A stretch of DNA of 42,006 nucleotides from Prevotella sp. (GTDB lineage Bacteria > Bacteroidota > Bacteroidia > Bacteroidales > Bacteroidaceae), in assembly GCA_017474925.1 (NCBI GenBank), contig JAFVGN010000026.1, forward strand, positions 1 to 42,006, written 5' to 3'. This document shows positions 19,987-32,392 of this stretch, in pieces; the stretch's first letter is position 1; every line of letters starts with the position of its first letter. Made by a program: the position numbers and the translations under genes. The notes below the pieces were generated by a model, which did not search any database, was not told where the DNA came from, and was given only the letters and a program-made list of their open reading frames with translations.

Positions 19987-20013
19987 GAATATTAGCAAAA
20001 TTGAAATAATTTG

Positions 20014-20047
20014 CCGTCGTAAATATAAATTTACGGCGGTTTTTTGT
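20014..20047 (+). terminator. Intrinsic terminator after M13 gene
   Basis: CCGTCGTAAA pairs with TTTACGGCGG (one G-U) and is followed by a run of six T. It lies 28 bases after the M13 stop. It ends the 15300-19986 transcript just before the next promoter. Confidence 0.85.
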
Positions 20048-20075
20048 TGTGTTTAAAAATATTTTGTTAACTTTG
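20043..20075 (+). promoter_or_regulatory. Promoter of the kinase/AAA+/FHA/PP2C operon
   Basis: TTTG (20043-20046), a 21-base spacer and TAACTTTG (20068-20075). It overlaps the T-run of the preceding terminator. The predicted transcription start near 20082 leaves a short leader to ATG 20100. No other promoter of this quality is seen in the gaps up to 32392, so one transcript may cover eight genes. Confidence 0.75.
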
Positions 20076-20099
20076 CAACAATTATTACTAATCAGCAAT

Positions 20100-21038
20100 A
20101 TGGCAAACGACAATAATTCAGAATTAGATAGGACACAACGCACTATGCGGCCTCAAGAAAAACAACGTGAGCGTGTACTCGAACACGAGGAGCAGCCCAT
20201 GCAGATGCAACAGCAACAACAGCAAGCAGAAGGCAAAGCGTGTCCCTTTTGTGGAACAATTAACGATCCGGAAGCAATGTTTTGTGCCCAATGTGGCCAG
20301 CCTATCAGCAAAGCAAACTGTCCCCATTGTGGAGCGGAAATAGATCCTGATACAGACTACTGCGAAACTTGCCATCATTATATCCGCAAGGACGTATGTT
20401 CATTTTGTGGTGCTCGACTCACGGGTAATGAAGCATATTGCCCGGAATGTGGAAGTCCCAGAGGCGGATTGGTGTGTCCAACATGTCACACGCTGAACGA
20501 ATTTGCCTTCTGTAAGAAGTGTGGAACAGCCCTGACAGAAGAAGCAAAGAAGATGGTGAAGGAGCTGCAATACAATCCAGACTACAAAAGCCTGATGGAA
20601 ATTGTGCAGGATTTTGCAAAGCTTGAAAACGCATTGCCGTATAATTCCGAACGAGACATAGTTCGCGAGCAGATGAACATCAAGCTCCGTGAAAGGGTGC
20701 TGACTCTGTTGGCTAGAGATGAAGGTGTAGAAAACCCTGTAATTCCTAAGCCTGAAAGTAAGCGCATGACCAAAGAGGAATTGGAAGAACAGCGTTCTGC
20801 TAAGATTAGAGTGCTGTCTACGATATTAGACCGTTTGGCAGTTCCTGCAGGAGCTTCACCGGCTAAGGCCCGCAATTATGCGATGGCAAGTAAACCCGTC
20901 GGAGTCCGTCTGGCATGGGTATGTAATTACAAACATGCCATGCACAGCAGTCCTTGCGGTTGTGCCAAGCCGCAATTAGGAGGCAAATGGGTTGTGTTAG
21001 GAAAAAATAATAATGGCGAAATTAGAGATGACAAATAA
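20100..21038 (+). CDS. Multi-zinc-ribbon protein with T-M-R-P motif
   Basis: 312 residues from ATG 20100; the longer open frame from 20049 starts upstream of the predicted transcription start. Residues 1-45 are polar and include R-T-M-R-P with T15, then a glutamine run. Between about 50 and 145 there are five to six CxxC knuckles in tandem (C-P-F-C, C-A-Q-C, C-P-H-C, C-E-T-C, C-S-F-C, C-P-E-C, C-P-T-C, C-K-K-C), forming double zinc ribbons of the DZANK type. The rest is charged and helical, ending with a small C-x-C-containing segment (S-P-C-G-C-A-K-P). No enzymatic motif is visible. As first gene of the kinase operon it is a likely substrate or scaffold: T15 shares its T-x-R-P context with three threonines in the kinase N-terminus. 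Confidence 0.8.
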   Translation: MANDNNSELDRTQRTMRPQEKQRERVLEHEEQPMQMQQQQQQAEGKACPFCGTINDPEAMFCAQCGQPISKANCPHCGAEIDPDTDYCETCHHYIRKDVCSFCGARLTGNEAYCPECGSPRGGLVCPTCHTLNEFAFCKKCGTALTEEAKKMVKELQYNPDYKSLMEIVQDFAKLENALPYNSERDIVREQMNIKLRERVLTLLARDEGVENPVIPKPESKRMTKEELEEQRSAKIRVLSTILDRLAVPAGASPAKARNYAMASKPVGVRLAWVCNYKHAMHSSPCGCAKPQLGGKWVVLGKNNNGEIRDDK

Positions 21039-21042
21039 TGCT

Positions 21043-24000
21043 ATGGACGAAAACTCTATCAAGCAAGATTTAGAAAGAACAGCTGTCATAAATAAGCCGG
21101 AGGTTGCATCTGCGGATAACGGTGACTCCACCATAAGGCCTGACACTACAGATGCTACCTTGCGTCCTGACAACATGGATGCCACGATACGTCCGGAAAA
21201 ACAATCTTCGCCCAACAAGGGAGGGGATGTGGAGTTTCTGCTCAAGGGACGGATTTATCATAACGTCAAGTGTCTTAGCGACAATTCCGGTGAAGCTCAA
21301 GTATTTTTGGTAGAAGGTGAGGAAGGAGAACGTGTATTGAAGATATATTATCCGAACTTCACCATCAAGAAGACTTTGATACGCATCATCCAAAACATGA
21401 ACATGGAGATGATTGTCAAGGTTGAGGATTATGGCAAAACCTATATAGACGGCAAGAATCGTGACTACGAGCTGATGGAATATTTTCGTGGTGGAACGCT
21501 GGGAGAATATGACCTTGAAGGCGATTTCAACCAGTTCCGCCGTATTGCTCTACAGGCAGCAGCCGCTTTGGCATTATGCCATAATTGCAACATTATTCAC
21601 AAGGATATCAAACCAGGTAATTTTTTCTTCCGCGACAAGACCCACAAGGAAATCGTGCTGGGTGATTTCGGAATTTCCAGCGTTTTGGACAATGACGAGA
21701 AAGTACATCGCACATCTCAGGCCCGCACGCCAGTTTACGCTGCTCCTGAGATGTATAACGACGTGATTGACGGCGAGGTGGAAATAACTCCTGCTGTTGA
21801 CTTCTATTCTCTGGGTATCACCCTGATGACGCTTTGGCTTGGCGAGAATCCGCTTAGTCAGAATGAGCGCGTCATGATGCGCAAGAAGAACGAAGGCCGA
21901 CTGCCCCGCATCAACGAGTTACCCGACCGTGTGAAAATGATTGTCCAGGGTCTGACATCAGTCAATCCTCAGACCAGATGGGGATACGACGAGGTGGAGC
22001 GCTGGTTCCTTGGAGAGAACGTAAAGGTCGACATGTCGTCACCCATCCTGAAATATCGAAGCTTTATTGTTGACCCAGAGCGCAATCTGGTGGCAGACAA
22101 TGTACATGAGCTGATACCGATGTTGCTGGAGAACGAACGCCTTGCCATCAACTATCTTTATAACGGGCGTATTGCCGGTTGGTTGGAACAATGTGGTAAT
22201 GTCAAGTTAAGTTCAGCCGTCAAGGATATTGTGGTGAATCGTTATCCTGCAGATCAAAAGGCAGGATTGATGTCCGCCGTCTATGCTATGGAGCCGACAT
22301 ATCCATATACAGACGTCCGGGGTAATCTTTGCGATGACGTGCATAGTGCAACCATCTCGGTGCTGAGCTATCAGGACGAATATATTCTGGCCTTGAGGAA
22401 TCCTAACGACAGGCTCTACCTGTATTTGGAATACCATTCCAAGGCAGATGTCAATAGAATTCGTTCCTACTTCTCGCCTGACAGCAAGATGGACATGCGT
22501 ATTGCCATCTTGAAACTAGCCTACGAAATAGATCCGGAAATACCATTCCTGGCAAAGTATCCGTCCTCAAATGTGGAAGAGATTATCCGCTCTTTTGGCT
22601 ATGAAGATTGTTCTGATGATGACTGGTGCAGTCTGAGCGACGGACGATTCCTGTCTTGGATGTACAGTCATGAAGACCACATGGCATGTGAAGCATTGCG
22701 TATCATGACGGCCAACAAGAAACCTTCGCGTTCGCTGGGCTATAAGGTCCTCTATAATATAGACCGCGAGGCAGCTTTTGACTTAAAGAGCGCAGATACT
22801 CCTTACAAAGTTGGCGAAGTAATGCGACAGGACCTGATGGATTGGCAGGACCTGGATGAACAGGAATTTCGTCAGAGAATAGCAGATTACAACAGTCCTG
22901 ACGGGCGCTTCTTCTATTTTGCGCAGTTGCATGGTTGGTATGAGCATATCAGTATGGCTCGTGCCTGCTTCGACATGAAGAGCGAAGAAAACAAGGAACG
23001 TTTAGGTGCATACGATCTTCGTACAGCAGCCTACCGGTTCTGTCGGTTGTTAGGTGTTACGCCCTATTACAAGCTTGAAGATGGAAAAGAACTGAAAACA
23101 GCTTACGACGTGGACGATTTAACTTATCGCCCGCAGTTGCTGACTGCCATGAAGCAAGGTTCATTAAGCCAGTGGTTGTCTGTATTTTATCATGAAGATC
23201 CCAACCAGGATTTTAGTGAACCTTATAGCTACGAGAGGAAGCTGGAGGAGTGGATTATCCGTCTTGGAGAAATGGACAAGGGACAGATTTATTACAAGCG
23301 GTATGGAACGGCAAAAGAAGAAACTGCACAGAAGTATGCACAAGTCCGTAAAGGATTCTATCGGGCTAAGGCGAAAGAGAACCGCTGGCGTATCATATTC
23401 TATTCTTTGTGTGGCTTATGGATTCTCTTGCTGTTAATTTGCGGAGTTTCGGGCCGTGAATATATATTCCGCCATTCGATGCTGACCATCGGTTTGCCAG
23501 TTGGTGGCATGACAGCAGTTATCGTTGGACTGCGGGCCTATTTCCGTGGCTACGGCTTTGTCATGTCATGTCTTTGGGGATTGTTGGGAATTCTATCCTC
23601 ATGGATTCCTATTACCATTCTCAAAATGGTGAATGCCTCATATCCCAGCATGTTTGTCCCTGTTGCCATTATCTTAACTTTGATTTATATGGCTGTCTGC
23701 CATGTAACAGATTACCGTAGCGACTCCAAAGGTGACAACCAGTTGATTAATGAGGTCATGGAAGATGACATCAAGTCGACGTTGCTCGAACCCCTCTATT
23801 ATACATTCAAGCAGAAGTCCTTCAAGTTCAAGGGATCCAAATTCGGTATGTTGGACGACGTAACCAATCAAGTGCGTTCTATCAGCGGTGAGTCTGTATT
23901 ACATTATATATTATGGAGTATCATGGTGTTTATCTTGGTGCTGCAGATGATAGTTTTCAGTCCAAAACTGATGAACTACAATAACCCAGACTTTGATAAC

Positions 24001-24054
24001 ATGCGTGTAAGTCCGACAGAAGTTGTGAAACAATTACAAAAGGATGTAGAATAA
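21043..24054 (+). CDS. Membrane-anchored Ser/Thr protein kinase
   Basis: 1003 residues from ATG 21043, 4 bases after the previous stop; in-frame ATGs at 21013 and 21028 would overlap that gene. The N-terminal tail holds three 9-residue repeats with T-[IL]-R-P (T30, T39, T48). A Hanks-type kinase domain follows (about 60-330): V-L-K-I-Y lysine, catalytic loop I-I-H-K-D-I-K-P-G-N with H186, L-G-D-F-G-I, and A-A-P-E. The catalytic HxD is H-K-D rather than the common H-R-D, so activation-loop phosphorylation may matter less. A long helical region without a recognised domain (about 345-780) leads to five predicted membrane helices (about 780-985). The kinase domain is therefore cytosolic with a C-terminal anchor. 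PP2C and FHA partners are encoded in the same operon. Confidence 0.9.
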   Translation: MDENSIKQDLERTAVINKPEVASADNGDSTIRPDTTDATLRPDNMDATIRPEKQSSPNKGGDVEFLLKGRIYHNVKCLSDNSGEAQVFLVEGEEGERVLKIYYPNFTIKKTLIRIIQNMNMEMIVKVEDYGKTYIDGKNRDYELMEYFRGGTLGEYDLEGDFNQFRRIALQAAAALALCHNCNIIHKDIKPGNFFFRDKTHKEIVLGDFGISSVLDNDEKVHRTSQARTPVYAAPEMYNDVIDGEVEITPAVDFYSLGITLMTLWLGENPLSQNERVMMRKKNEGRLPRINELPDRVKMIVQGLTSVNPQTRWGYDEVERWFLGENVKVDMSSPILKYRSFIVDPERNLVADNVHELIPMLLENERLAINYLYNGRIAGWLEQCGNVKLSSAVKDIVVNRYPADQKAGLMSAVYAMEPTYPYTDVRGNLCDDVHSATISVLSYQDEYILALRNPNDRLYLYLEYHSKADVNRIRSYFSPDSKMDMRIAILKLAYEIDPEIPFLAKYPSSNVEEIIRSFGYEDCSDDDWCSLSDGRFLSWMYSHEDHMACEALRIMTANKKPSRSLGYKVLYNIDREAAFDLKSADTPYKVGEVMRQDLMDWQDLDEQEFRQRIADYNSPDGRFFYFAQLHGWYEHISMARACFDMKSEENKERLGAYDLRTAAYRFCRLLGVTPYYKLEDGKELKTAYDVDDLTYRPQLLTAMKQGSLSQWLSVFYHEDPNQDFSEPYSYERKLEEWIIRLGEMDKGQIYYKRYGTAKEETAQKYAQVRKGFYRAKAKENRWRIIFYSLCGLWILLLLICGVSGREYIFRHSMLTIGLPVGGMTAVIVGLRAYFRGYGFVMSCLWGLLGILSSWIPITILKMVNASYPSMFVPVAIILTLIYMAVCHVTDYRSDSKGDNQLINEVMEDDIKSTLLEPLYYTFKQKSFKFKGSKFGMLDDVTNQVRSISGESVLHYILWSIMVFILVLQMIVFSPKLMNYNNPDFDNMRVSPTEVVKQLQKDVE

Positions 24055-24055
24055 T

Positions 24056-27000
24056 ATGATCTGTGAGCATTGTCATAAAGAAAATCGTTCGGTAGCAAAG
24101 TTCTGCAAATGGTGCGGCAAGCCCCTTGTTTCGCAGAATGTGCTTGACCGCATGATAGGTCTGAACGATGTTAAGCAGCAGTTGAAGACGATTGTTGACA
24201 CCTATACCTATTTGCATTCGCGCAAGGACATTATGAAAGTCCGCCTGAGCGTCAATGCCATTATCATTGGTGAGACTGGTACGGGTAAGACTGCTTTAGC
24301 AGAGGTGATACGCGACTATTTCTATCAGCACAATATAATTGATAAGCCGAAGCTGACCATGGTGGATGCTGTGGACTATCAGCGTTTCGTAGACAAGTGG
24401 GACGACAATGTAAAGAAGGCAAAGGGTGGTATCCTGTTTTTTGACAATGTTCAGAAATTACTTCCGGACCGCTATTCAAATCAAGTTAATCCTCTTGACA
24501 AGTTGTTTGTCGAGATGGACAAATGGGATGAGAATCCTATTGTCATGATTTCCGGTCTGCCCAAGGGTTTGGATGATTTTCTGACGACAAACCCTGCGGC
24601 GCAAAACCGTTTTAAATACACATTCCGGCTTCCGACTCCAGGTTTTCAGGAATTGTGTGAGATTTGTAAGCAGGAACTCCGCACCAAGTATGGCATAGCC
24701 GCCTATACCCCAGAAGCCGATCATAAGCTGCAACGATTCTTCCAGTATCAGCTAAAGATTAAGGACGAAACTTTCGGCTTCGCTCATGTGGCAGTCAAAA
24801 CAGCTGAAGACATCTTCACCTCGTTCATTAGCCGTGGCGCTAATGCTGTAATGGTAGAAGAGAGTGATATCCGCGGCTATGTACCTGAGGAACGTTCTTT
24901 AGAGGATATTCTCAGCGACCTTGACCAGTACATCGGTATGGACGAGGTGAAGAAAGCTGTTCGTGAGATTGCCTTTACTGTGTTCAATAATGTGCAACGT
25001 GCCCAGCGAGGTCTGGGAGAGCAGGAAAAGTCCGGCATCCATATCGTGCTGACAGGTAATCCCGGAACAGGCAAGACGACTATTGCGCGGAAACTTGGTG
25101 AGATATTGGAGGCTATCGGCTATCTGGACAGCGGTCATGTTGTGGAAGTTGACCGTTCCAAGATGGTTAGTCCCTATCAGGGTGAGACCCCTAAGGTAGT
25201 TGACCGCTTGTGCGATAAGGCCATAGGCGGCATCTTGTTTGTAGACGAAGCCTATACCTTGGCTCCCGTCAGCCAAAGTGGAGACCGTGACCAGCAAGGT
25301 GCACAGGCTTTGGAGCAGTTGATGAAACGCATGGAGGACGACCGTGGGAAATTTGTTGTTATAGCAGCCGGTTACCGTCAGGAGATGGACAATCTCTTCC
25401 GTATTAATCCTGGTGTACGAAGTCGATTCAGCTATTTCCTGAATATTGACGATTATACTCCTGTCCAGCTCTTTGATATTATGCAACTCTTTGCCAAGGA
25501 GAAGAAATATCAATTCACGAAAGAAGCGGAAGAGTTGGCAAAGAAGATGATCACGGAGCTTTATAATTCCCGTGAGAAAGATTTTGCAAACGGTCGGACT
25601 ATGCGCCAGCTGTTCGACAAAATATGTGCCAAGCAGGCTGAACGTCTTCAGAAGGGCGACATGTCGGCTCTGACAAATGAACAGCTGATGACCATTGACG
25701 TTGCCGACATTCCATACGAGGCACCTAAGGCCGTAGACTATAGGGAGTGTCTGACAAAGCTTAATGGTATGGTTGGCTTGGCAGCTGTCAAGAAGGAAAT
25801 CTCCAATCTTGCTGCCTTCCTGAATTTGCAGATACGTCGTGGAGAAACAAATACTTTCCAAGGCAAGCACTATGTCTTTACTGGTAACCCCGGAACAGGT
25901 AAGACAACCGTTGCACGTATCATGGCTGACGTGTTCCGCACGTTAGGAATCCTTTCGCGTGGACAGTTGATAGAAGCCGACCGAAGCAAGCTGGTAGCGG
26001 GCTATTCAGGACAGACGGCAATCAAGACCAATCAGCTGATAGACTCTGCCATGGGTGGTGTGTTGTTCATTGACGAAGCCTATACTCTAAAGTCGAGCGA
26101 CAATGATAGTTTTGGCGGTGAAGCTATCGATACGCTTTTAAAGCGATTGGAGGATGACCGCGGGAAGTTTATCTGTATCGTGGCTGGTTATACAGACCAG
26201 ATGCACGACTTTATCGATACCAACCCAGGTCTGAAGAGTCGCTTTACACAAACTATTCATTTCGACGATTACACACCAGACGAACTGACTGAGATATTCC
26301 TTAACCTTGCCAAAGGTAAGAATTTCACCGTGGATGAGGAGACCCGGGGAGCTGTTCACCGCCAGTTTGAACAACTGTATTTGCGTCGTGATAAGAATTT
26401 CGGAAATGCTCGTGAGGCGCGTCGCATTTTTGATCAGGCAGTTGAGAAACAGAGCCAGCGTCTGGTCAGCATGATGGGTAATCCTGACTTCAAGGATGAT
26501 GACATGTACAAGATTACCACATCCGATATTGAAGTTACACAAAGCGAGAAGGCCCGTCCCCTTGACGAAGTACTTAACGAGCTTGACGACTTCATCGGTA
26601 TGCGTTCGGTCAAGAATATGATTCGTCGCTTGGCTGTGCAGAGCATGTTTATGAAGCAGCGTGCTGCAGCAGGTGCCGGCAAGGTACAACAGATGGCTAT
26701 GAATTTTGTTTTGACAGGTAATCCTGGAACAGGAAAGACCTCAATAGCCCGTAAGATGGGGGAGGTGCTGCAATCCATGGAGATTTTGCCTACAAACCGC
26801 GTCATCGAAGCAAGTCGCGCCACACTCGTAGGCAAGTACATGGGTGAGACACCTAAGATTGTTAACAACATGTGCGATAAGGCTATGGGTGGTATTCTGT
26901 TCATCGATGAAGCTTACACGCTCTCCTCGGAGAACGACCAGTATGGCAAGGAAGCTATTGACACTCTGATGAAGCGTATGGAGGACGACCGTGGAAAGTT

Positions 27001-27367
27001 TGTTGTCATTGCTGCCGGCTACAAAGACGAGATGGAGACTTTCCTTGCCGTTAATCCTGGTCTGGCCAGCAGATTCACACATAAGATGCATATTGACGAC
27101 TATAATGAAGATGAGCTGCTCGCTATTTACAAGAAGATGGCAAGTAAGGACAATTACAAGTTGTCGCCAGAGGCTGAGTTTAAGCTGATGGATCTCATCT
27201 GCCGCAAGGTTATCAGTAAGAATGAGTCCTTCGGCAATGCCCGTGAAATGCGTAACATGCTAGATGCAACAATACAGCAACTCTCCATGCGTGTCAGTCA
27301 GATGTCACAGTCGGACATCACGCAAGAGACTTATCAATTGATTATGCCAGAAGATATTAAAGAATAA
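24056..27367 (+). CDS. Zinc ribbon plus four AAA+ modules (CbxX/SpoVK-like)
   Basis: 1103 residues. A zinc ribbon (C-E-H-C ... C-K-W-C) occupies residues 1-25. Four AAA+ modules follow, with Walker A motifs at about 72 (G-E-T-G-T-G-K-T), 334, 610 and 888 (all G-N-P-G-T-G-K-T). Modules 2-4 have intact Walker B segments (L-F-V/I-D-E-A-Y-T-L) and arginine-finger-like G-[VL]-x-S-R-F. Module 1 has L-F-F-D-N in place of D-E and lacks the S-R-F, so it probably binds but does not hydrolyse ATP. The three canonical modules are of the CbxX/CfqX type found in Rubisco activase CbbX, SpoVK and EccA of type VII secretion, usually one per protein. It starts 1 base after the kinase stop. I infer a remodelling ATPase under kinase/FHA control; its client is unknown. 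Confidence 0.88.
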   Translation: MICEHCHKENRSVAKFCKWCGKPLVSQNVLDRMIGLNDVKQQLKTIVDTYTYLHSRKDIMKVRLSVNAIIIGETGTGKTALAEVIRDYFYQHNIIDKPKLTMVDAVDYQRFVDKWDDNVKKAKGGILFFDNVQKLLPDRYSNQVNPLDKLFVEMDKWDENPIVMISGLPKGLDDFLTTNPAAQNRFKYTFRLPTPGFQELCEICKQELRTKYGIAAYTPEADHKLQRFFQYQLKIKDETFGFAHVAVKTAEDIFTSFISRGANAVMVEESDIRGYVPEERSLEDILSDLDQYIGMDEVKKAVREIAFTVFNNVQRAQRGLGEQEKSGIHIVLTGNPGTGKTTIARKLGEILEAIGYLDSGHVVEVDRSKMVSPYQGETPKVVDRLCDKAIGGILFVDEAYTLAPVSQSGDRDQQGAQALEQLMKRMEDDRGKFVVIAAGYRQEMDNLFRINPGVRSRFSYFLNIDDYTPVQLFDIMQLFAKEKKYQFTKEAEELAKKMITELYNSREKDFANGRTMRQLFDKICAKQAERLQKGDMSALTNEQLMTIDVADIPYEAPKAVDYRECLTKLNGMVGLAAVKKEISNLAAFLNLQIRRGETNTFQGKHYVFTGNPGTGKTTVARIMADVFRTLGILSRGQLIEADRSKLVAGYSGQTAIKTNQLIDSAMGGVLFIDEAYTLKSSDNDSFGGEAIDTLLKRLEDDRGKFICIVAGYTDQMHDFIDTNPGLKSRFTQTIHFDDYTPDELTEIFLNLAKGKNFTVDEETRGAVHRQFEQLYLRRDKNFGNAREARRIFDQAVEKQSQRLVSMMGNPDFKDDDMYKITTSDIEVTQSEKARPLDEVLNELDDFIGMRSVKNMIRRLAVQSMFMKQRAAAGAGKVQQMAMNFVLTGNPGTGKTSIARKMGEVLQSMEILPTNRVIEASRATLVGKYMGETPKIVNNMCDKAMGGILFIDEAYTLSSENDQYGKEAIDTLMKRMEDDRGKFVVIAAGYKDEMETFLAVNPGLASRFTHKMHIDDYNEDELLAIYKKMASKDNYKLSPEAEFKLMDLICRKVISKNESFGNAREMRNMLDATIQQLSMRVSQMSQSDITQETYQLIMPEDIKE

Positions 27368-27369
27368 CT

Positions 27370-27954
27370 ATGATTATTTGTCCAAGTTGTAAAGAAGAGA
27401 TAGAAGACGATTCCCACTATTGTGACCAGTGTGGACAGGAACTTGTTTATTGCAGTAACTGCGGGCGTGTCGGAATGGGACGCCGTTGTACTTATTGCGG
27501 TGGATTGATGATTAGTGCAGAAGAGATTCATCAACAGCGTATTGCACCCAAGAAAGATTCGCCTTCCGACTTTTCCAGCCTTGCATTTACTTCTGTTAAC
27601 GACCGAATGCAGACTAATAACCCTGCGGGTCCGAACATGCCAGGCAGAAACGGCATTCCTACGCTGACACTTTATAATCCTAGTCTTGACATTAGGATTG
27701 TAGGTATCAATGGTGCCATCATCGGCCGTCGTCAGGGACCATATGCCCAGATGTTTGACGGCAATAAGTATATTTCGGGCGTTCACGCCCAGCTCATCTA
27801 CAAGCTTGATAGCGGCTGGTGTATCATCGACAAGCACTCGTCAAATGGAACCAAACTGAATCAGCGTGATTTGTTGCCAGATGTCCCCATGTCCATCAAG
27901 AGTGGTGATATTGTAACATTGGCCAATATCAATTTGCAGGTGACTATCAATTAG
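27370..27954 (+). CDS. Zinc-ribbon FHA-domain protein
   Basis: 194 residues. The N-terminal 50 residues carry four CxxC knuckles (C-P-S-C, C-D-Q-C, C-S-N-C, C-T-Y-C). A flexible linker (about 55-95, rich in N, P and S) leads to a C-terminal FHA domain (about 97-194) with the phosphothreonine-binding signature: G-R-R-Q-G, Y-I-S-G-V-H-A-Q-L and S-S-N-G-T-K-L-N. These conserved G-R, S-x-x-H and N-G residues are all present, so binding should be functional. It starts 2 bases after the AAA+ gene. The obvious ligands are the T-x-R-P threonines in the kinase tail and in the 20100 protein (inference). Confidence 0.92.
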   Translation: MIICPSCKEEIEDDSHYCDQCGQELVYCSNCGRVGMGRRCTYCGGLMISAEEIHQQRIAPKKDSPSDFSSLAFTSVNDRMQTNNPAGPNMPGRNGIPTLTLYNPSLDIRIVGINGAIIGRRQGPYAQMFDGNKYISGVHAQLIYKLDSGWCIIDKHSSNGTKLNQRDLLPDVPMSIKSGDIVTLANINLQVTIN

Positions 27955-27982
27955 AGAAAAGATAATAGGGATAATAACAGAT

Positions 27983-28729
27983 ATGAGCAGAATTATGTTA
28001 ACGGCTGCAAGCCGTGTCGGATGTATTAGAAGCAACAATGAGGATATGATCCTCGCCTACGATAAATTTGTACGAAGTGATTTATATCGTACAGAATTCA
28101 TGACAGAAAATGTTGATCGTTTTGCCATTGCCTTAGCTGACGGTATGGGGGGACATAATGCTGGCGAGGTTGCCAGCTCCGATGTCCTGACAAATCTTCA
28201 TTTTTTCCTGAACGACCTGCCACGAGGCCTTGCCTCTGGTGAATTTTGTGAAATGATGACCGAATGGCTCCAGTCTGTCAATCAGATTATTGACTCGAAA
28301 GGCCATGTCAATCCTAATATGTCTGAAATGGGAACGACCTTGGTTGGTGTCATATTCTATAATAACAAATATTATTGGATGAATTGCGGTGACAGTCGTT
28401 TGTACCGTTTCCGCAACGGCTGTCTTTCCCAGATAACCACCGACCACTCGATGAACAACATCAAAGGGGAGAAAAAGCATTCGAACATCCTTACCAATTG
28501 CATTGGTGCTGGATGCAGGCACTCTTATATGGATTTATTTGAATTTACCGATGATTTCCTGTCGGGCGACGTCTATCTGGTTTGCTCTGATGGCTTGAAC
28601 GATATGATTAGCGACAATAACATCTGTTCTTTGTTGGCGGAAGGCTGTTCTGCCAATGATTTATGCGAAGCTGCCATTACAGCAGGTGGTTACGATAATG
28701 TGTCAGTATGTGTTTTTAATGTGGAATAA
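27983..28729 (+). CDS. PP2C-family Ser/Thr phosphatase
   Basis: 248 residues. All metal-binding motifs of the PPM family are present in order: R-S-N-N-E-D, A-D-G-M-G-G-H-N-A-G-E, G-T-T-L, N-C-G-D-S-R-L-Y-R, C-S-D-G-L-N-D and Y-D-N-V-S-V. It is a stand-alone cytosolic phosphatase of normal length, with no membrane segment or sensor domain. It lies 28 bases after the FHA gene and 3 bases before metA. It should reverse the phosphorylation made by the kinase of the same operon. An alternative in-frame start at 27995 would shorten it by four residues. Confidence 0.93.
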   Translation: MSRIMLTAASRVGCIRSNNEDMILAYDKFVRSDLYRTEFMTENVDRFAIALADGMGGHNAGEVASSDVLTNLHFFLNDLPRGLASGEFCEMMTEWLQSVNQIIDSKGHVNPNMSEMGTTLVGVIFYNNKYYWMNCGDSRLYRFRNGCLSQITTDHSMNNIKGEKKHSNILTNCIGAGCRHSYMDLFEFTDDFLSGDVYLVCSDGLNDMISDNNICSLLAEGCSANDLCEAAITAGGYDNVSVCVFNVE

Positions 28730-28732
28730 GCT

Positions 28733-29650
28733 ATGCCTTTAAGATTACCTGACAAACTTCCTGCCATAGAGCTGCTGAAGCACGAGAACATTTTTGTAAT
28801 GGATGATTCGCGTGCCCACATGCAGGACATACGTCCGTTGAAGATTGCTATTCTTAACCTCATGCCGCTCAAAATAACGACAGAGACAGATTTGATACGT
28901 CTGCTTTCCAACACTCCGCTACAGTTGGAAATCAGTTTTATGAAACTCAAGAGTCATACGCCGAAGAATACTCCCATTGAGCACATGATGATGTTCTATC
29001 GCGACTTTGAGCAGATGCGTCTGGAGAAATACGATGGTATGATTATTACCGGTGCTCCCGTTGAGACTCTTGATTTTGAGAAAGTCAACTATTGGCAGGA
29101 AATGAAAGAAATATTTGAATGGGCCCGCACGCACGTTACAAGTACCTTATATATATGTTGGGCGGCTCAGGCCGGTCTCTATTATTATTATGGTATTCCC
29201 AAGTATCCGTTGCCCAAGAAAATGTTTGGAGTGTTCCCACAGTATCCTATGGAACCTCAGTTGCCTATTTTCCGTGGTTTCGACGATGTGTTCCAGATGC
29301 CCCACAGCCGGCATACAGAAATACATCGGGAAGATATTCTGGCTCATCCAGACTTGACATTGATAGCCGAGTCGCCTGACTCCGGTGTTTCTATGGTGAT
29401 GGCCCGCAATGGTCGTGAGTTCTTTATCACGGGACATCTGGAGTACGCTCCCAATACCCTTGACAACGAATATAAACGTGACAGGGGTATTCGTGACGAT
29501 GTGGAACTGCCCAAGAACTATTATCTTGACAACAACCCAGACAATATGCCGATGGTTAGCTGGCGCGCTCATGCCAACTTGCTTTATAGTAACTGGATTA
29601 ACTATTACGTCTATCAGGAAACACCTTACGATATTAATCAGATTCAATGA
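28733..29650 (+). CDS. metA: Homoserine O-acyltransferase (MetA family, acetyl-type)
   Basis: 305 residues, full length for MetA. The nucleophile C142 is in Y-I-C-W-A-A-Q-A-G, and the catalytic His/Glu region reads H-S-R-H-T-E and F-I-T-G-H-L-E-Y. It activates homoserine for methionine synthesis. Residue 111 is glutamate (T-G-A-P-V-E). In characterised MetA proteins glutamate at this position selects acetyl-CoA, whereas glycine (as in E. coli) selects succinyl-CoA, so the product is probably O-acetylhomoserine. It starts 3 bases after the PP2C stop and overlaps the next gene by 4 bases, so it seems to share the phosphosignalling transcript. Confidence 0.95.
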   Translation: MPLRLPDKLPAIELLKHENIFVMDDSRAHMQDIRPLKIAILNLMPLKITTETDLIRLLSNTPLQLEISFMKLKSHTPKNTPIEHMMMFYRDFEQMRLEKYDGMIITGAPVETLDFEKVNYWQEMKEIFEWARTHVTSTLYICWAAQAGLYYYYGIPKYPLPKKMFGVFPQYPMEPQLPIFRGFDDVFQMPHSRHTEIHREDILAHPDLTLIAESPDSGVSMVMARNGREFFITGHLEYAPNTLDNEYKRDRGIRDDVELPKNYYLDNNPDNMPMVSWRAHANLLYSNWINYYVYQETPYDINQIQ

Positions 29651-31434
29651 TATCATTAGAGCTGCTTGCACCTGCAAAGAATCTTGAATGTGGCATTGCT
29701 GCAGTTGACCACGGTGCCGATGCCGTATATATTGGTGCCGAACGATTTGGAGCCCGTGCTATAGCAGGAAACACCCTTGAGGATATCCAACAACTCTGCC
29801 GCTATGCTCACCAGTTTGCTGTCAAGGTATACGTGACTGTCAATACTATCATCTATGATGATGAGTTGACGGCGACAGAACAGTTGATTCACCAGCTCTA
29901 TGATATAGGTGTCGATGCTATACTGGTGCAGGATATGGGCATTTTGCGGATGAATCTTCCACCCATAGCCCTTCATGCTTCCACACAGACTGACAATCGT
30001 AGTGCCGACAAGGTCCGATGGCTGCGTGATGTCGGCTTCCGTCGGGCGGTATTGGCTCGTGAGCTCTCGGTCGATGAGATAGCAGACATACATGCTCAAG
30101 TACCAGACATGCCTTTAGAGGTTTTCGTCCATGGTGCTCTTTGTGTCAGCTATAGTGGTCTCTGTTATGCATCGCAGCATTGTTTTGGCCGTTCTGCCAA
30201 TAGAGGGACGTGTGCACAGTTCTGCCGTATGAAGTTTGATCTGCTTGATGCTGATGGTCATGTCTTGGAACAGCAACGTCATCTTCTATCCCTGAAAGAC
30301 CTGAACCAGATAGACCATTTGGAAGAACTTATCAAGGCAGGAGCGAGCTCTTTCAAGATAGAAGGTCGTCTGAAGGACGCTTTTTATGTCAAGAATGTGG
30401 TTGCTGCGTATAACCAGCGCCTCAACAGTATCATCAGCCGTCATCCCAATCAATATTGCCGTGCATCAAAAGGTCACGTCGTCTATTCCTTCACACCCCG
30501 TTTGGAGAAGACTTTCAATCGTGGCTTTACGACCTATTTCCTGCATGGGCGTCAACCGGATATCTTTTCGCCTGATACGCCTAAGGCCATGGGAGAATAT
30601 GTCGGTAAGGTGAAAGAAATACGTCGCGATTCGTTTAACGTTGCTGGTACGGCTTCGTTTGCCAATGGCGACGGACTATGCTTCATCAATCAGGATCGTG
30701 AACTGGAAGGCTTCCGTGTCAACCGTGCTGAGGGCAATCGGCTCTATCCCTATAAGATGCCAGCCCATTTGCGGCCAGGACAGGCATTATATCGTAATAA
30801 TGATCAGGAGTTTGAGCGTCTTCTTTCACGTTCAAGTGCAGAGCGTAAAATTCCTATAACCATGCGGCTGTCAACCGTTGACAATGGTTTTTCCTTGAGT
30901 TGTGGTGATGTTTCTGTTGCCGTCGAGTGCCATCATCAGCAAGCAGAAAAGCCCCCTCGCGACAATATAGTCCGCCAACTGTCAAAGCTGGGTGGGACAT
31001 CTTATGAGTGTGAGGAGGTGGAATTGGCTGATGATTTCAACTATTTCATTCCGAGCAGCGTGTTGGCTGAGTTACGCCGTCAGCTTGTATCACGTCTGTC
31101 TGAGTCTCAACGAAGGCCGGCCGCAGAATCGTACACAACAGATCGGTTCGTTTCTCCGCCTTCCTATTCTTCTCCTTACCTCTATAACATAGCCAACCGG
31201 TTGGCTTCCGAGTTCTATGGTATGAAGGAGACAGCCTATGAACTGAAGGGTGGACGAGGGCCTGTCATGCAATGTCGCCATTGTCTGCGCTATTCGTTAG
31301 GTTATTGTGTGAAGCATGGCGGACGTAAACCCCTGTGGCATGAACCGCTCCGCTTGCGTCTGGGTGACGGACGCCTGTTCCCGCTTGAGTTCGATTGTAA
31401 ACATTGTCAGATGAATGTCTATGCTGAAGATTAA
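29647..31434 (+). CDS. Peptidase U32 family protein (RlhA-like)
   Basis: 595 residues. The U32 core (1 to about 300) starts E-L-L-A-P-A-K and contains G-A-D-A-V-Y-I-G. The cysteine-rich signature is V-F-V-H-G-A-L-C-V-S-Y-S-G-L-C, followed by N-R-G-T-C-A-Q-F-C-R and F-K-I-E-G-R. The conserved cysteines are proposed iron-sulfur ligands in the U32 proteins that hydroxylate 23S rRNA or make cofactors. The C-terminal domain carries a further C-x-x-C pair (C-R-H-C) and ends near C-K-H-C. RlhA (rRNA C2501 hydroxylation) is the closest well-characterised relative I can name; proteolysis is unlikely. The start overlaps the metA stop (ATGA). Confidence 0.88.
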   Translation: MISLELLAPAKNLECGIAAVDHGADAVYIGAERFGARAIAGNTLEDIQQLCRYAHQFAVKVYVTVNTIIYDDELTATEQLIHQLYDIGVDAILVQDMGILRMNLPPIALHASTQTDNRSADKVRWLRDVGFRRAVLARELSVDEIADIHAQVPDMPLEVFVHGALCVSYSGLCYASQHCFGRSANRGTCAQFCRMKFDLLDADGHVLEQQRHLLSLKDLNQIDHLEELIKAGASSFKIEGRLKDAFYVKNVVAAYNQRLNSIISRHPNQYCRASKGHVVYSFTPRLEKTFNRGFTTYFLHGRQPDIFSPDTPKAMGEYVGKVKEIRRDSFNVAGTASFANGDGLCFINQDRELEGFRVNRAEGNRLYPYKMPAHLRPGQALYRNNDQEFERLLSRSSAERKIPITMRLSTVDNGFSLSCGDVSVAVECHHQQAEKPPRDNIVRQLSKLGGTSYECEEVELADDFNYFIPSSVLAELRRQLVSRLSESQRRPAAESYTTDRFVSPPSYSSPYLYNIANRLASEFYGMKETAYELKGGRGPVMQCRHCLRYSLGYCVKHGGRKPLWHEPLRLRLGDGRLFPLEFDCKHCQMNVYAED

Positions 31435-32392
31435 ATATGTCATCCTGTTCGTTGTAAGCACGCTACTGACGGCGTGTTATAATCACCGTCAGCGGACTCC
31501 TGATGCCTGGGACCTTTCCAAACAGCAGATAGACTCCATATCTTTCTTTACGACTCACCATTATTCTCAGAATTACAACTTTGTCGTTTCAGCTTCCAGC
31601 TTGCCGCTTTCTGACGAATTACCCGAAATGGCCTTTGACACCCTCTACGTAACTCGTGGCGAGCGTATTGTCGTTGCTGAAATAACGACAGTACCAACAG
31701 ATACCATTGACTCCGTATGGGTGAAGGTTGCCCGAGATCAGATAACACAAGGTTGGATACGTGAAAGCGAACTGCTTCAGGGTGTTTCACCTGACGACCC
31801 TATTTCTCAGTTTATAGACTTCTTTTCCAATACCCATCTGCTTATCTTCCTTGCCTTTTGTACTGTCGTTGGAAGTGCGTATGCCATGCGTCGCCTGATG
31901 CGTCGTAAGGCTGACATCGTCCACTTCAATGACATTGACTCCTTCTACCCGACGTTACTCTGCCTATTGGTTGCCTCTTCTGCAACGCTTTATGCCACTA
32001 TTCAGATGTATGCTCCTGAGTCGTGGCGACATTTCTACTACCATCCGTCGCTCAATCCTTTTGCGCTACCCAAGCACTTAGGCTTTTTCGTTGCTTCCGT
32101 GTGGGCTATCATCATTGTTGCGTTGGCGGCCATCGACGATGTACGTCACCATCTTTCCGGGGCTGATGCGATACTCTATCTTGCAGGATTGGCTGCGATT
32201 TGTGCTGTCGACTATGTCGTTTTCAGCATTTTCACCTTATATTATATAGGCTATCTGCTACTGCTGGCATATGTGTGCTATGCTTTATGGCGCTATTTCC
32301 GTTATGCACATCATCCCTACACCTGCGGTTCTTGTGGTGCACGTCTTCGTCATAAAGGGCAATGTCCCCATTGCGGCAAGGAAAATGTCTAA
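31421..32392 (+). CDS. Lipoprotein-like membrane protein with SH3-like domain and C-terminal zinc ribbon
   Basis: 323 residues from ATG 31421 (ATG 31415 also possible; both overlap the U32 end). A signal sequence with a lipobox-like L-L-T-A-C is followed by an extracytoplasmic region of about 110 residues containing an SH3-like strand pattern (R-G-E-R-I-V-V-A-E, W-V-K-V, G-W-I-R-E-S-E-L). Then come about five membrane helices (140-300) and a cytosolic-looking zinc ribbon (C-G-S-C ... C-P-H-C) at the C-terminus. The protein is conserved in Bacteroidales as far as I recall, without known role. The terminal ribbon repeats the zinc-ribbon theme of the upstream kinase operon. It converges with, and overlaps by 4 bases, the MFS gene. 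Confidence 0.65.
   Translation: MLKIKYVILFVVSTLLTACYNHRQRTPDAWDLSKQQIDSISFFTTHHYSQNYNFVVSASSLPLSDELPEMAFDTLYVTRGERIVVAEITTVPTDTIDSVWVKVARDQITQGWIRESELLQGVSPDDPISQFIDFFSNTHLLIFLAFCTVVGSAYAMRRLMRRKADIVHFNDIDSFYPTLLCLLVASSATLYATIQMYAPESWRHFYYHPSLNPFALPKHLGFFVASVWAIIIVALAAIDDVRHHLSGADAILYLAGLAAICAVDYVVFSIFTLYYIGYLLLLAYVCYALWRYFRYAHHPYTCGSCGARLRHKGQCPHCGKENV

What the first reader, a model, noticed from the sequence alone, without database searches (positions are those of the whole stretch)
20043..28729. Operon joining a membrane Ser/Thr kinase, FHA reader, PP2C phosphatase, zinc-ribbon protein and a four-module AAA+ ATPase
Seen: one promoter, then five genes with gaps of 1-28 bases coding for writer (kinase), reader (FHA), eraser (PP2C), a zinc-ribbon protein and a 1103-residue ATPase. 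Known: kinase/FHA/PP2C triads regulate type VI secretion, and CbxX-type AAA+ proteins serve CbbX, SpoVK and EccA; no secretion structural gene is present here. Inference: a phosphorylation-switched remodelling machine tethered to the inner membrane, with no described function that I know of. Three of the five proteins start with zinc ribbons, suggesting they assemble through them.
Basis: partly seen in the sequence, partly recalled or inferred. Interest (0 to 1): 0.85.

Follow-up and report, generated by a model that had tools for sequence, protein, structure and literature searches.

The report
Phospho-switched five-gene AAA+ operon
A run of five neighbouring genes, kept in the same order in distantly related bacteria, looks like the parts list of a membrane-anchored protein-pulling machine switched by adding and removing phosphate; no job for it was found in the literature searched.

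Summary
The true order is zinc-ribbon protein (ZNR), kinase (KIN), AAA+ ATPase (AAA), FHA protein, PP2C. A Bacteroidota -7 box precedes ZNR in 34 of 40 loci, internal genes in 2 of 170. All five genes keep order and strand in 40 of 45 loci; the other five lie at contig ends. Carriers are Prevotella (beside metA), Bacteroides timonensis, another Bacteroidales family and two families of another class; six loci have no metA nearby. Twelve Prevotella genomes have an empty M13 peptidase-metA site.

New here: (1) the kinase's N-terminal tail carries repeats of D-x-T-[IVLM]-R-(P), about 190-fold denser than in the rest of KIN; the motif recurs in some ZNR and FHA proteins, a plausible phosphorylation and FHA-docking array. 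(2) AAA module 1 has lost its Walker B glutamate (Asn in 43 of 44), while 3-5 further modules keep it; chains hold 4, 5 or 6 modules.

Best reading: a membrane-tethered, phosphorylation-gated protein remodeller, logically like the T6SS PpkA-Fha-PppA-ClpV pathway but not tied to T6SS. Substrate unknown. Eight literature searches found no description.

The parts
20013..20040 (+). Terminator-like hairpin of the upstream M13 peptidase gene
   Evidence: 12 pairs, T tail; a consensus match only
20043..20075 (+). Bacteroidota-type promoter; -7 box TAACTTTG at 20068-20075
   Evidence: TAnnTTTG upstream of ZNR in 34 of 40 loci, 2 of 170 internal starts; the consensus is recalled
20100..21038 (+). ZNR: four zinc ribbons, helical linker, C-terminal conserved W-C...H..P..C..P..GG.W motif (312 aa)
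20142..20153 (+). TMRP motif in the N-terminal tail of ZNR, candidate phosphothreonine/FHA site
   Evidence: T[ILMVF][RK]P in 12 of 39 ZNR tails; shuffled mean 0.2
21043..24054 (+). KIN: Ser/Thr kinase with N-tail, kinase domain, unassigned middle region, C-terminal hydrophobic segments (ATG 21013 and 21028 are alternative starts)
21124..21195 (+). DSTIRP - DATLRP - DATIRP repeats in the KIN tail, candidate autophosphorylation/FHA-docking array
23392..23961 (+). Five hydrophobic (probable transmembrane) segments of KIN
   Evidence: Kyte-Doolittle 19-residue window
24056..27367 (+). AAA: N-terminal zinc ribbon and four CbxX-type AAA+ modules (1103 aa)
24143..24880 (+). AAA module 1 (approximate bounds): Walker A intact, Walker B FFDN (Glu to Asn), no Y-x-G pore loop
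24893..27355 (+). AAA modules 2-4 (approximate bounds): Walker A, Walker B DE, arginine-finger motif and Y-x-G pore loop present
27370..27954 (+). FHA: two zinc ribbons, linker, FHA domain (194 aa)
27983..28729 (+). PP2C: protein phosphatase, catalytic motifs kept (248 aa)

Best explanation
The five genes encode one machine: a protein-remodelling AAA+ ATPase whose recruitment is switched by threonine phosphorylation at the inner membrane. C-terminal hydrophobic segments anchor KIN, leaving its kinase domain and N-tail in the cytoplasm (inferred from sequence). KIN phosphorylates threonines of its own D-x-T-[IVLM]-R tail array, and of the same motif in ZNR and in some FHA proteins (inferred). 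The FHA protein binds these phosphothreonines and brings in AAA, probably through zinc ribbons (inferred). AAA modules 2-4 hydrolyse ATP and pull a polypeptide with their pore loops, as CbbX does, while module 1 binds ATP without hydrolysing it and acts as a regulatory or anchoring module (inferred). PP2C removes the phosphates and resets the complex (inferred). Shown by sequence: the conserved gene set and order, one promoter-like box, intact catalytic motifs, the motif array, and the lost Walker B glutamate of module 1. Not shown: phosphorylation, binding, threading, substrate.
For: Same five genes, order and strand in 40 of 45 loci, the other five at contig ends. Six loci lie away from metA, and no protein is shared between loci among 64 neighbouring ORFs of nine loci at blastp E 1e-3, so the five travel as a unit. 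One promoter box. Empty site in 12 operon-less Prevotella genomes; AAA and KIN searches of them gave only partial, lower matches. Kinase catalytic Lys, HxDxKPxN, DFG and the P-E of APE invariant in two alignments; FHA GR, S..H and S-x-N-G, and the PP2C acidic motifs, kept across classes. Tail array: 78 strict sites [DE]xT[ILMV][RK] in 3125 aa of 40 KIN tails (31 of 40 tails; shuffled 1.2 sd 1.1, maximum 5 in 1000), against 5 in 38219 aa of the rest of KIN, 3 in 47377 aa of AAA, 0 in 10056 aa of PP2C, 7 in 7774 aa of FHA and 6 in 20507 aa of 64 neighbouring ORFs. Nine tails fetched after the motif was first seen hold 23 sites; shuffled 0.29 sd 0.54. FHA proteins of L160-L164 end in [DE][KA]T[IV]R[ILV]. 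AAA modules match CbbX (E 7.5e-67) and EccA1 (E 3.1e-65) in the PDB; pore loops; CbbX pore-loop mechanism in PMC5385338 (passages). Precedent: Fha1 is needed for ClpV1 focal recruitment and PpkA and PppA act in opposite directions (PMC3953482, passages).
Against: No substrate or phenotype is known. The motif was chosen after being seen; 9 of 40 tails, and 3 of the nine later ones (L101, L103, L165), have no strict site; tails depend on start codons picked by script. FHA specificity for this motif is unknown. In P. [quoted passage not shown] Some active modules in distant members have F-x-G, H-x-G or lack the glycine of Y-x-G. The operon is patchy (12 of 35 same-genus relatives; 7 of 395 sampled genomes of the phylum had the full AAA N-terminal match), so it is not generally essential.
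Confidence: 0.55

Rival explanations
1. It is a regulatory and motor annex of a secretion system (type VI threonine-phosphorylation pathway, or type VII EccA-like) encoded elsewhere in the genome.
For: Kinase, FHA, PP2C and an AAA+ ATPase work in T6SS of Proteobacteria. FHA matches TagH weakly (E 1.4e-6, 28 bits against cut-off 120); AAA matches the EccA model.
Against: TssC PF17541 was found in only 4 of 21 operon-bearing genomes (G018, G020, G025, G454) and in 2 of 5 operon-less ones; VipB PF05943 in 0 of 25 (poor test for this phylum). EccD TIGR03920 in 0 of 21, but no control genome rang either, so that is no proof of absence. No secretion gene among 20 flanking proteins of six distant or differing loci put to Pfam. 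Some genomes are incomplete.
Confidence: 0.06
2. It is an anti-phage or stress-conflict system in which the phosphorylation relay triggers the AAA+ effector.
For: Patchy presence. The best PADLOC match of KIN is the kinase mad6 (E 2.1e-32, kinase domain only) and AAA matches IetA, TRIP13 and mad8 among others. KIN, FHA, PP2C and ZNR diverge faster than AAA. SMI1/KNR4 (SUKH-1) proteins lie beside or inside the operon in L160 and L161; the first also matches candidate defence family PDC-M40A at 28 bits.
Against: No PADLOC family fits ZNR, FHA or PP2C; KIN and AAA matches cover the generic kinase or ATPase parts, and KIN scores 74.5 bits against the 460-bit cut-off for MAD6. In Prevotella it sits at one fixed housekeeping site, with two changes on the tree. 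No nuclease, protease or toxin domain in the five proteins.
Confidence: 0.17
3. It is an envelope-growth controller like the mycobacterial PknB-FhaA-PstP set, the AAA acting on membrane or cell-wall complexes.
For: Membrane kinase with FHA and PP2C; FHA matches FhaB/FipA weakly (E 6.2e-6, 26 bits against cut-off 125). The mycobacterial set is recalled.
Against: No PASTA domain in KIN; no cell-wall synthesis gene among the 20 flanking proteins put to Pfam; absent from 23 of 35 same-genus relatives by the AAA search and flank check.
Confidence: 0.15

Closest known systems
T6SS threonine-phosphorylation pathway (PpkA-Fha1-PppA with ClpV1)
   Same: Ser/Thr kinase, FHA reader, PP2C-type eraser and an AAA+ motor whose focal recruitment needs the FHA protein (PMC3953482, passages)
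   Different: Motor is CbxX-type with 4-6 modules in one chain, not ClpV; a fifth zinc-ribbon protein; TssC not found in 17 of 21 carriers
CbbX / CfxQ red-type Rubisco activase
   Same: CbxX-type AAA+ module with AAA_lid_6 and pore loop
   Different: Four to six fused modules, the first without the Walker B glutamate, plus a zinc ribbon; Rubisco large subunit found in 0 of 21 carriers
SpoVK and T7SS EccA
   Same: Four stretches match TIGR02881 and TIGR03922
   Different: The high whole-protein scores are sums over four stretches; organisation and partner genes differ
Kinase-PP2C-vWA neighbourhoods of GAP1-N2 conflict systems (Kaur et al. 2020, PMC7159879, passages)
   Same: Kinase, often with a zinc ribbon or TM helices, next to PP2C
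   Different: Actinobacterial, with vWA and GTPase parts; no FHA protein or CbxX AAA with them in the passages seen

Membership tests
T6SS threonine-phosphorylation pathway | Kinase, FHA protein and PP2C together | tested here: met
T6SS threonine-phosphorylation pathway | Goes with T6SS structural genes | tested here: not met
   TssC PF17541 in 4 of 21 carriers and 2 of 5 non-carriers; PF05943 in 0 of 25
CbbX Rubisco activase | CbxX-type AAA+ module with pore loop | tested here: met
   (modules 2-4)
CbbX Rubisco activase | Occurs with Rubisco | tested here: not met
   PF00016 in 0 of 21 carriers; control rang in 5 of 14 genomes
EccA / type VII secretion | ESX genes present | tested here: inconclusive
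   TIGR03920 EccD in 0 of 21, but in 0 of 14 controls too
Described anti-phage defence system | Specific PADLOC or NCBIfam defence family matches | tested here: not met
   none for ZNR, FHA, PP2C; generic-domain matches for KIN (mad6) and AAA (TRIP13, IetA, mad8), KIN far below the MAD6 cut-off
Described anti-phage defence system | Protection from phage | not testable with these tools
   needs a phage assay

The most novel reading that the evidence does not exclude
A stand-alone bacterial machine of a new kind: a single-chain array of 4-6 CbxX modules, the first ATP-locked and the active ones of two pore-loop types that tend to alternate, arranged as a dynein- or Rea1-like partial ring, and held at the membrane by multivalent FHA binding to a phosphothreonine-repeat tail whose occupancy is set by the operon's own kinase and PP2C.
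Probability: 0.25. Interest if true: 0.9.

Novelty: new variant of a known kind. Interest (0 to 1): 0.72.

Why it matters
A kinase-FHA-PP2C switch that works with an AAA+ motor is known from type VI secretion. Here the same logic seems to stand alone with a different motor, conserved across two classes of one phylum, and the sequence names its own candidate phosphorylation sites. That makes an unstudied machine testable with short phosphopeptides and single-residue changes in gut bacteria.

Tried and rejected
Structure prediction of AAA and KIN was planned, to see ring or stack arrangement and the unassigned KIN middle region; the tool was off, so no fold search was made. KIN middle and C-terminal region: no meaningful Pfam or PDB match (only PDB row E 0.007, over a membrane stretch). 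ZNR: no PDB match at E 0.01. Other proteins with the tail array, one tail as query in 11 genomes: five of the eight matches are KIN of the operon (G454, G056, G000, G125, G129) and one is a second B. timonensis kinase (L222) without the other four genes in the 20 kb read; the remaining two (L221, L223) showed no frame with two or more motifs. One query, not exhaustive. T6SS link. A sixth shared gene: the first comparison printed only its best 80 rows, all of the five genes, and could not show this; repeated without the five genes it gave no pair among 64 ORFs at E 1e-3. Pfam nevertheless finds SUKH-1 in one neighbour each of L160 and L161. Loci L105-L159 (55 of 80) match at most residues 1-135 of 290 at 26-35% identity and were dropped. 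In one search, 41 of 48 matching genomes match from residue 15-30 on, without the zinc ribbon; they were not counted as members, and 14 regions of 13 of them were checked for partners: no ZNR, KIN, FHA or PP2C found (L166-L179).

Rows dropped: KIN of L082 (start mis-called by the script) and ZNR of L099 (short open frame) from tail counts; identical tails collapsed.
Full report
What is there. The window is a Prevotella-type chromosome segment: its closest named relatives (L080-L103) are mostly Prevotella or Prevotellaceae, and the AAA, KIN and M13+MetA trees place the window among them. Between an M13 peptidase gene and metA lie five genes on one strand: ZNR, KIN, AAA, FHA, PP2C. A terminator-like hairpin closes the peptidase gene and a Bacteroidota -7 box (TAACTTTG) follows (the consensus is recalled). 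A TAnnTTTG box lies within 110 nt upstream of ZNR in 34 of 40 loci, and before internal genes in 1 of 43 (KIN), 0 of 44 (AAA), 0 of 42 (FHA) and 2 of 42 (PP2C). The KIN case is L082, whose start the script mis-called, so 2 of 170. One promoter is therefore more than chance. PP2C and metA are 3 bases apart in the window, so metA may share the transcript.

Conservation in the genus. AAA was searched in 60 genomes, the window's own included. Of 35 same-genus genomes, 10 have a full-length AAA and G033 has it split over two contigs; G031 has PP2C beside metA at a contig end, making 12 of 35. Of the other 23, 12 have M13 and metA directly adjacent (60-301 bases), G008 has the ABC-F gene 59 bases from metA, G012 and G014 have other inserts (2264 and 4545 bases), G010 and G029 have metA without M13 in the stretch read, and six gave no metA match. 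KIN gave only partial matches over the kinase domain in those searched. On a tree of M13 plus MetA from 24 genomes (11 with, 13 without), presence needs two changes against 8.2 for shuffled labels. This fits vertical inheritance at one site with gain or loss of the whole cassette.

Beyond the genus. In 395 sampled genomes of the phylum, 7 (the window's own included) match the whole AAA N-terminal region, zinc ribbon included. The five-gene order is complete in G175, G129, G322 and G275, from two families of another class (not named by the tool), and in G056, another family of the order. In G125 the set seems split over two contigs. Named genomes with all five include P. aff. ruminicola Tc2-24 and Bacteroides timonensis AP1; Candidatus Minthousia equi is cut by its contig end after ZNR-KIN-AAA. 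Of 45 loci, 40 hold all five in one order on one strand; the other five (L041, L046, L094, L099, L164) lie at contig ends, L046's AAA frame closing 44 bases before the end. Extra ORFs occur in L161 (between ZNR and KIN), L042 (an AAA-module fragment between AAA and FHA) and L046 (between KIN and AAA). No metA was found in the stretches read around L042, L104 and L160-L163; L101 keeps metA but not the M13 gene. Neighbouring ORFs of nine loci (64 of them) share no pair at blastp E 1e-3. Pfam on 20 of the neighbours of L042, L104, L160-L163 and L101 gives ordinary enzymes (IMP dehydrogenase, GidA, aconitase, a sulphate permease, a family 20 glycosidase and others), unknowns, and SUKH-1 in one neighbour each of L160 and L161. 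AAA is the slowest of the five: 70-89% identity to the window within the genus, where KIN is 51-71%, and 47-51% to the other class, where KIN is 27-30%.

The kinase tail. KIN has a tail of 34-286 residues before the kinase domain. In 40 distinct tails, T[ILMVF][RK] occurs 106 times in 3125 aa (36 of 40 tails; shuffled mean 7.8, sd 2.7, maximum 16 in 500) and 71 times in the other 38219 aa of KIN. Among the 106 sites, position -2 is D or E in 83, +2 is R in 99 and +3 is P in 43. The strict form [DE]xT[ILMV][RK] occurs 78 times in tails (31 of 40; shuffled 1.2), against 5 in the rest of KIN, 3 in AAA (47377 aa), 0 in PP2C (10056 aa), 7 in FHA (7774 aa) and 6 in 64 neighbouring ORFs (20507 aa). 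The motif was chosen after being seen. Nine tails fetched later give 23 sites against 0.29 expected, though three of the nine have none. It also occurs in ZNR tails (strict form in 10 of 39; T[ILMVF][RK]P in 12 of 39), at the very C-terminus of the FHA proteins of L160-L164 and in the FHA linker of L104. The simplest reading is a set of kinase sites read by the FHA domain; no phosphorylation has been shown.

The ATPase. Modules 2-4 of the window protein have Walker A, Walker B DE, an arginine-finger motif and a Y-x-G pore loop; module 1 has Walker A but FFDN in Walker B and no such loop. In distant members some active modules have F-x-G, H-x-G or no glycine there. Asn replaces the Walker B Glu of module 1 in 43 of 45 loci; L046 has Glu, and L041 lacks the module because of its contig end. 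Of the loci examined, chains have 4 modules in Prevotella, L101, L104, L042 and L163, 5 in L160-L162 and 6 in L164. Active modules fall into two pore-loop types (ETPK-like and QTxxKTN-like) that tend to alternate; by best module matches the order is swapped in L104 and L042. Solved relatives are CbbX and EccA1; CbbX is thought to pull the Rubisco large-subunit tail into its pore with Tyr/Ile/Gly loops (PMC5385338, passages).

Mechanism. Writer, reader and eraser are intact by motif, the kinase has C-terminal hydrophobic segments, and the motor is of a polypeptide-pulling family. I therefore favour a membrane-tethered remodeller whose assembly is set by threonine phosphorylation. The nearest working model is T6SS, where Fha1 is needed for ClpV1 focal recruitment and PpkA and PppA act in opposite directions; there, however, Fha1 phosphorylation itself is not needed for ClpV1 recruitment (PMC3953482, passages). 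It does not look like a T6SS part: TssC PF17541 was found in 4 of 21 carriers and 2 of 5 non-carriers. Nor like a Rubisco activase: PF00016 in 0 of 21 carriers. A type VII test with EccD was inconclusive because no control rang. A defence role stays open: the best PADLOC match of KIN is mad6 by its kinase domain, and AAA matches mad8, IetA and TRIP13 by its ATPase modules.

Novelty. Eight searches of the held paper library for this set or its parts gave no paper that describes it; passages of PMC7159879, PMC12419801 and PMC1887533 were seen and concern other systems. Two further searches were for the T6SS and CbbX precedents. Most subscription papers are outside that library. The domains are known kinds; the combination, the tail array and the multi-module ATPase with a Glu-less first module were not found described.

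Noticed in passing
window 28729-29650: metA (homoserine O-acetyltransferase type) starts 3 bases after PP2C and the next gene (U32 family) overlaps metA by 4 bases, so methionine synthesis may be co-transcribed with the operon.
   Followed up: partly
window 31415-32392: A probable membrane protein with a C-terminal zinc-ribbon-like CxxC pair follows the U32 gene; a similar-looking gene follows in L101 (17836-18885). No NCBIfam match at E 1e-5.
   Followed up: no
L224 7640-10129 (B. timonensis, G454:C90): A second, shorter KIN paralogue with its own DKTLRP tail (L222); no ZNR, AAA, FHA or PP2C found within the 20 kb read.
   Followed up: partly
L166-L172, L176, L177: Other members of the phylum carry 1008-1371-residue multi-module CbxX proteins (open frames) without ZNR, KIN, FHA or PP2C homologues in the stretches read.
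   Followed up: no
L160 10445-10966; L161 4288-5082: SMI1/KNR4 (SUKH-1) proteins lie directly after PP2C in L160 and between ZNR and KIN in L161; the first also matches candidate defence family PDC-M40A at 28 bits.
   Followed up: partly
L205 628-5172 and L204 2153-4416: Two Prevotella genomes without a detected operon carry other inserts between M13 and metA, so this junction tolerates insertions.
   Followed up: no
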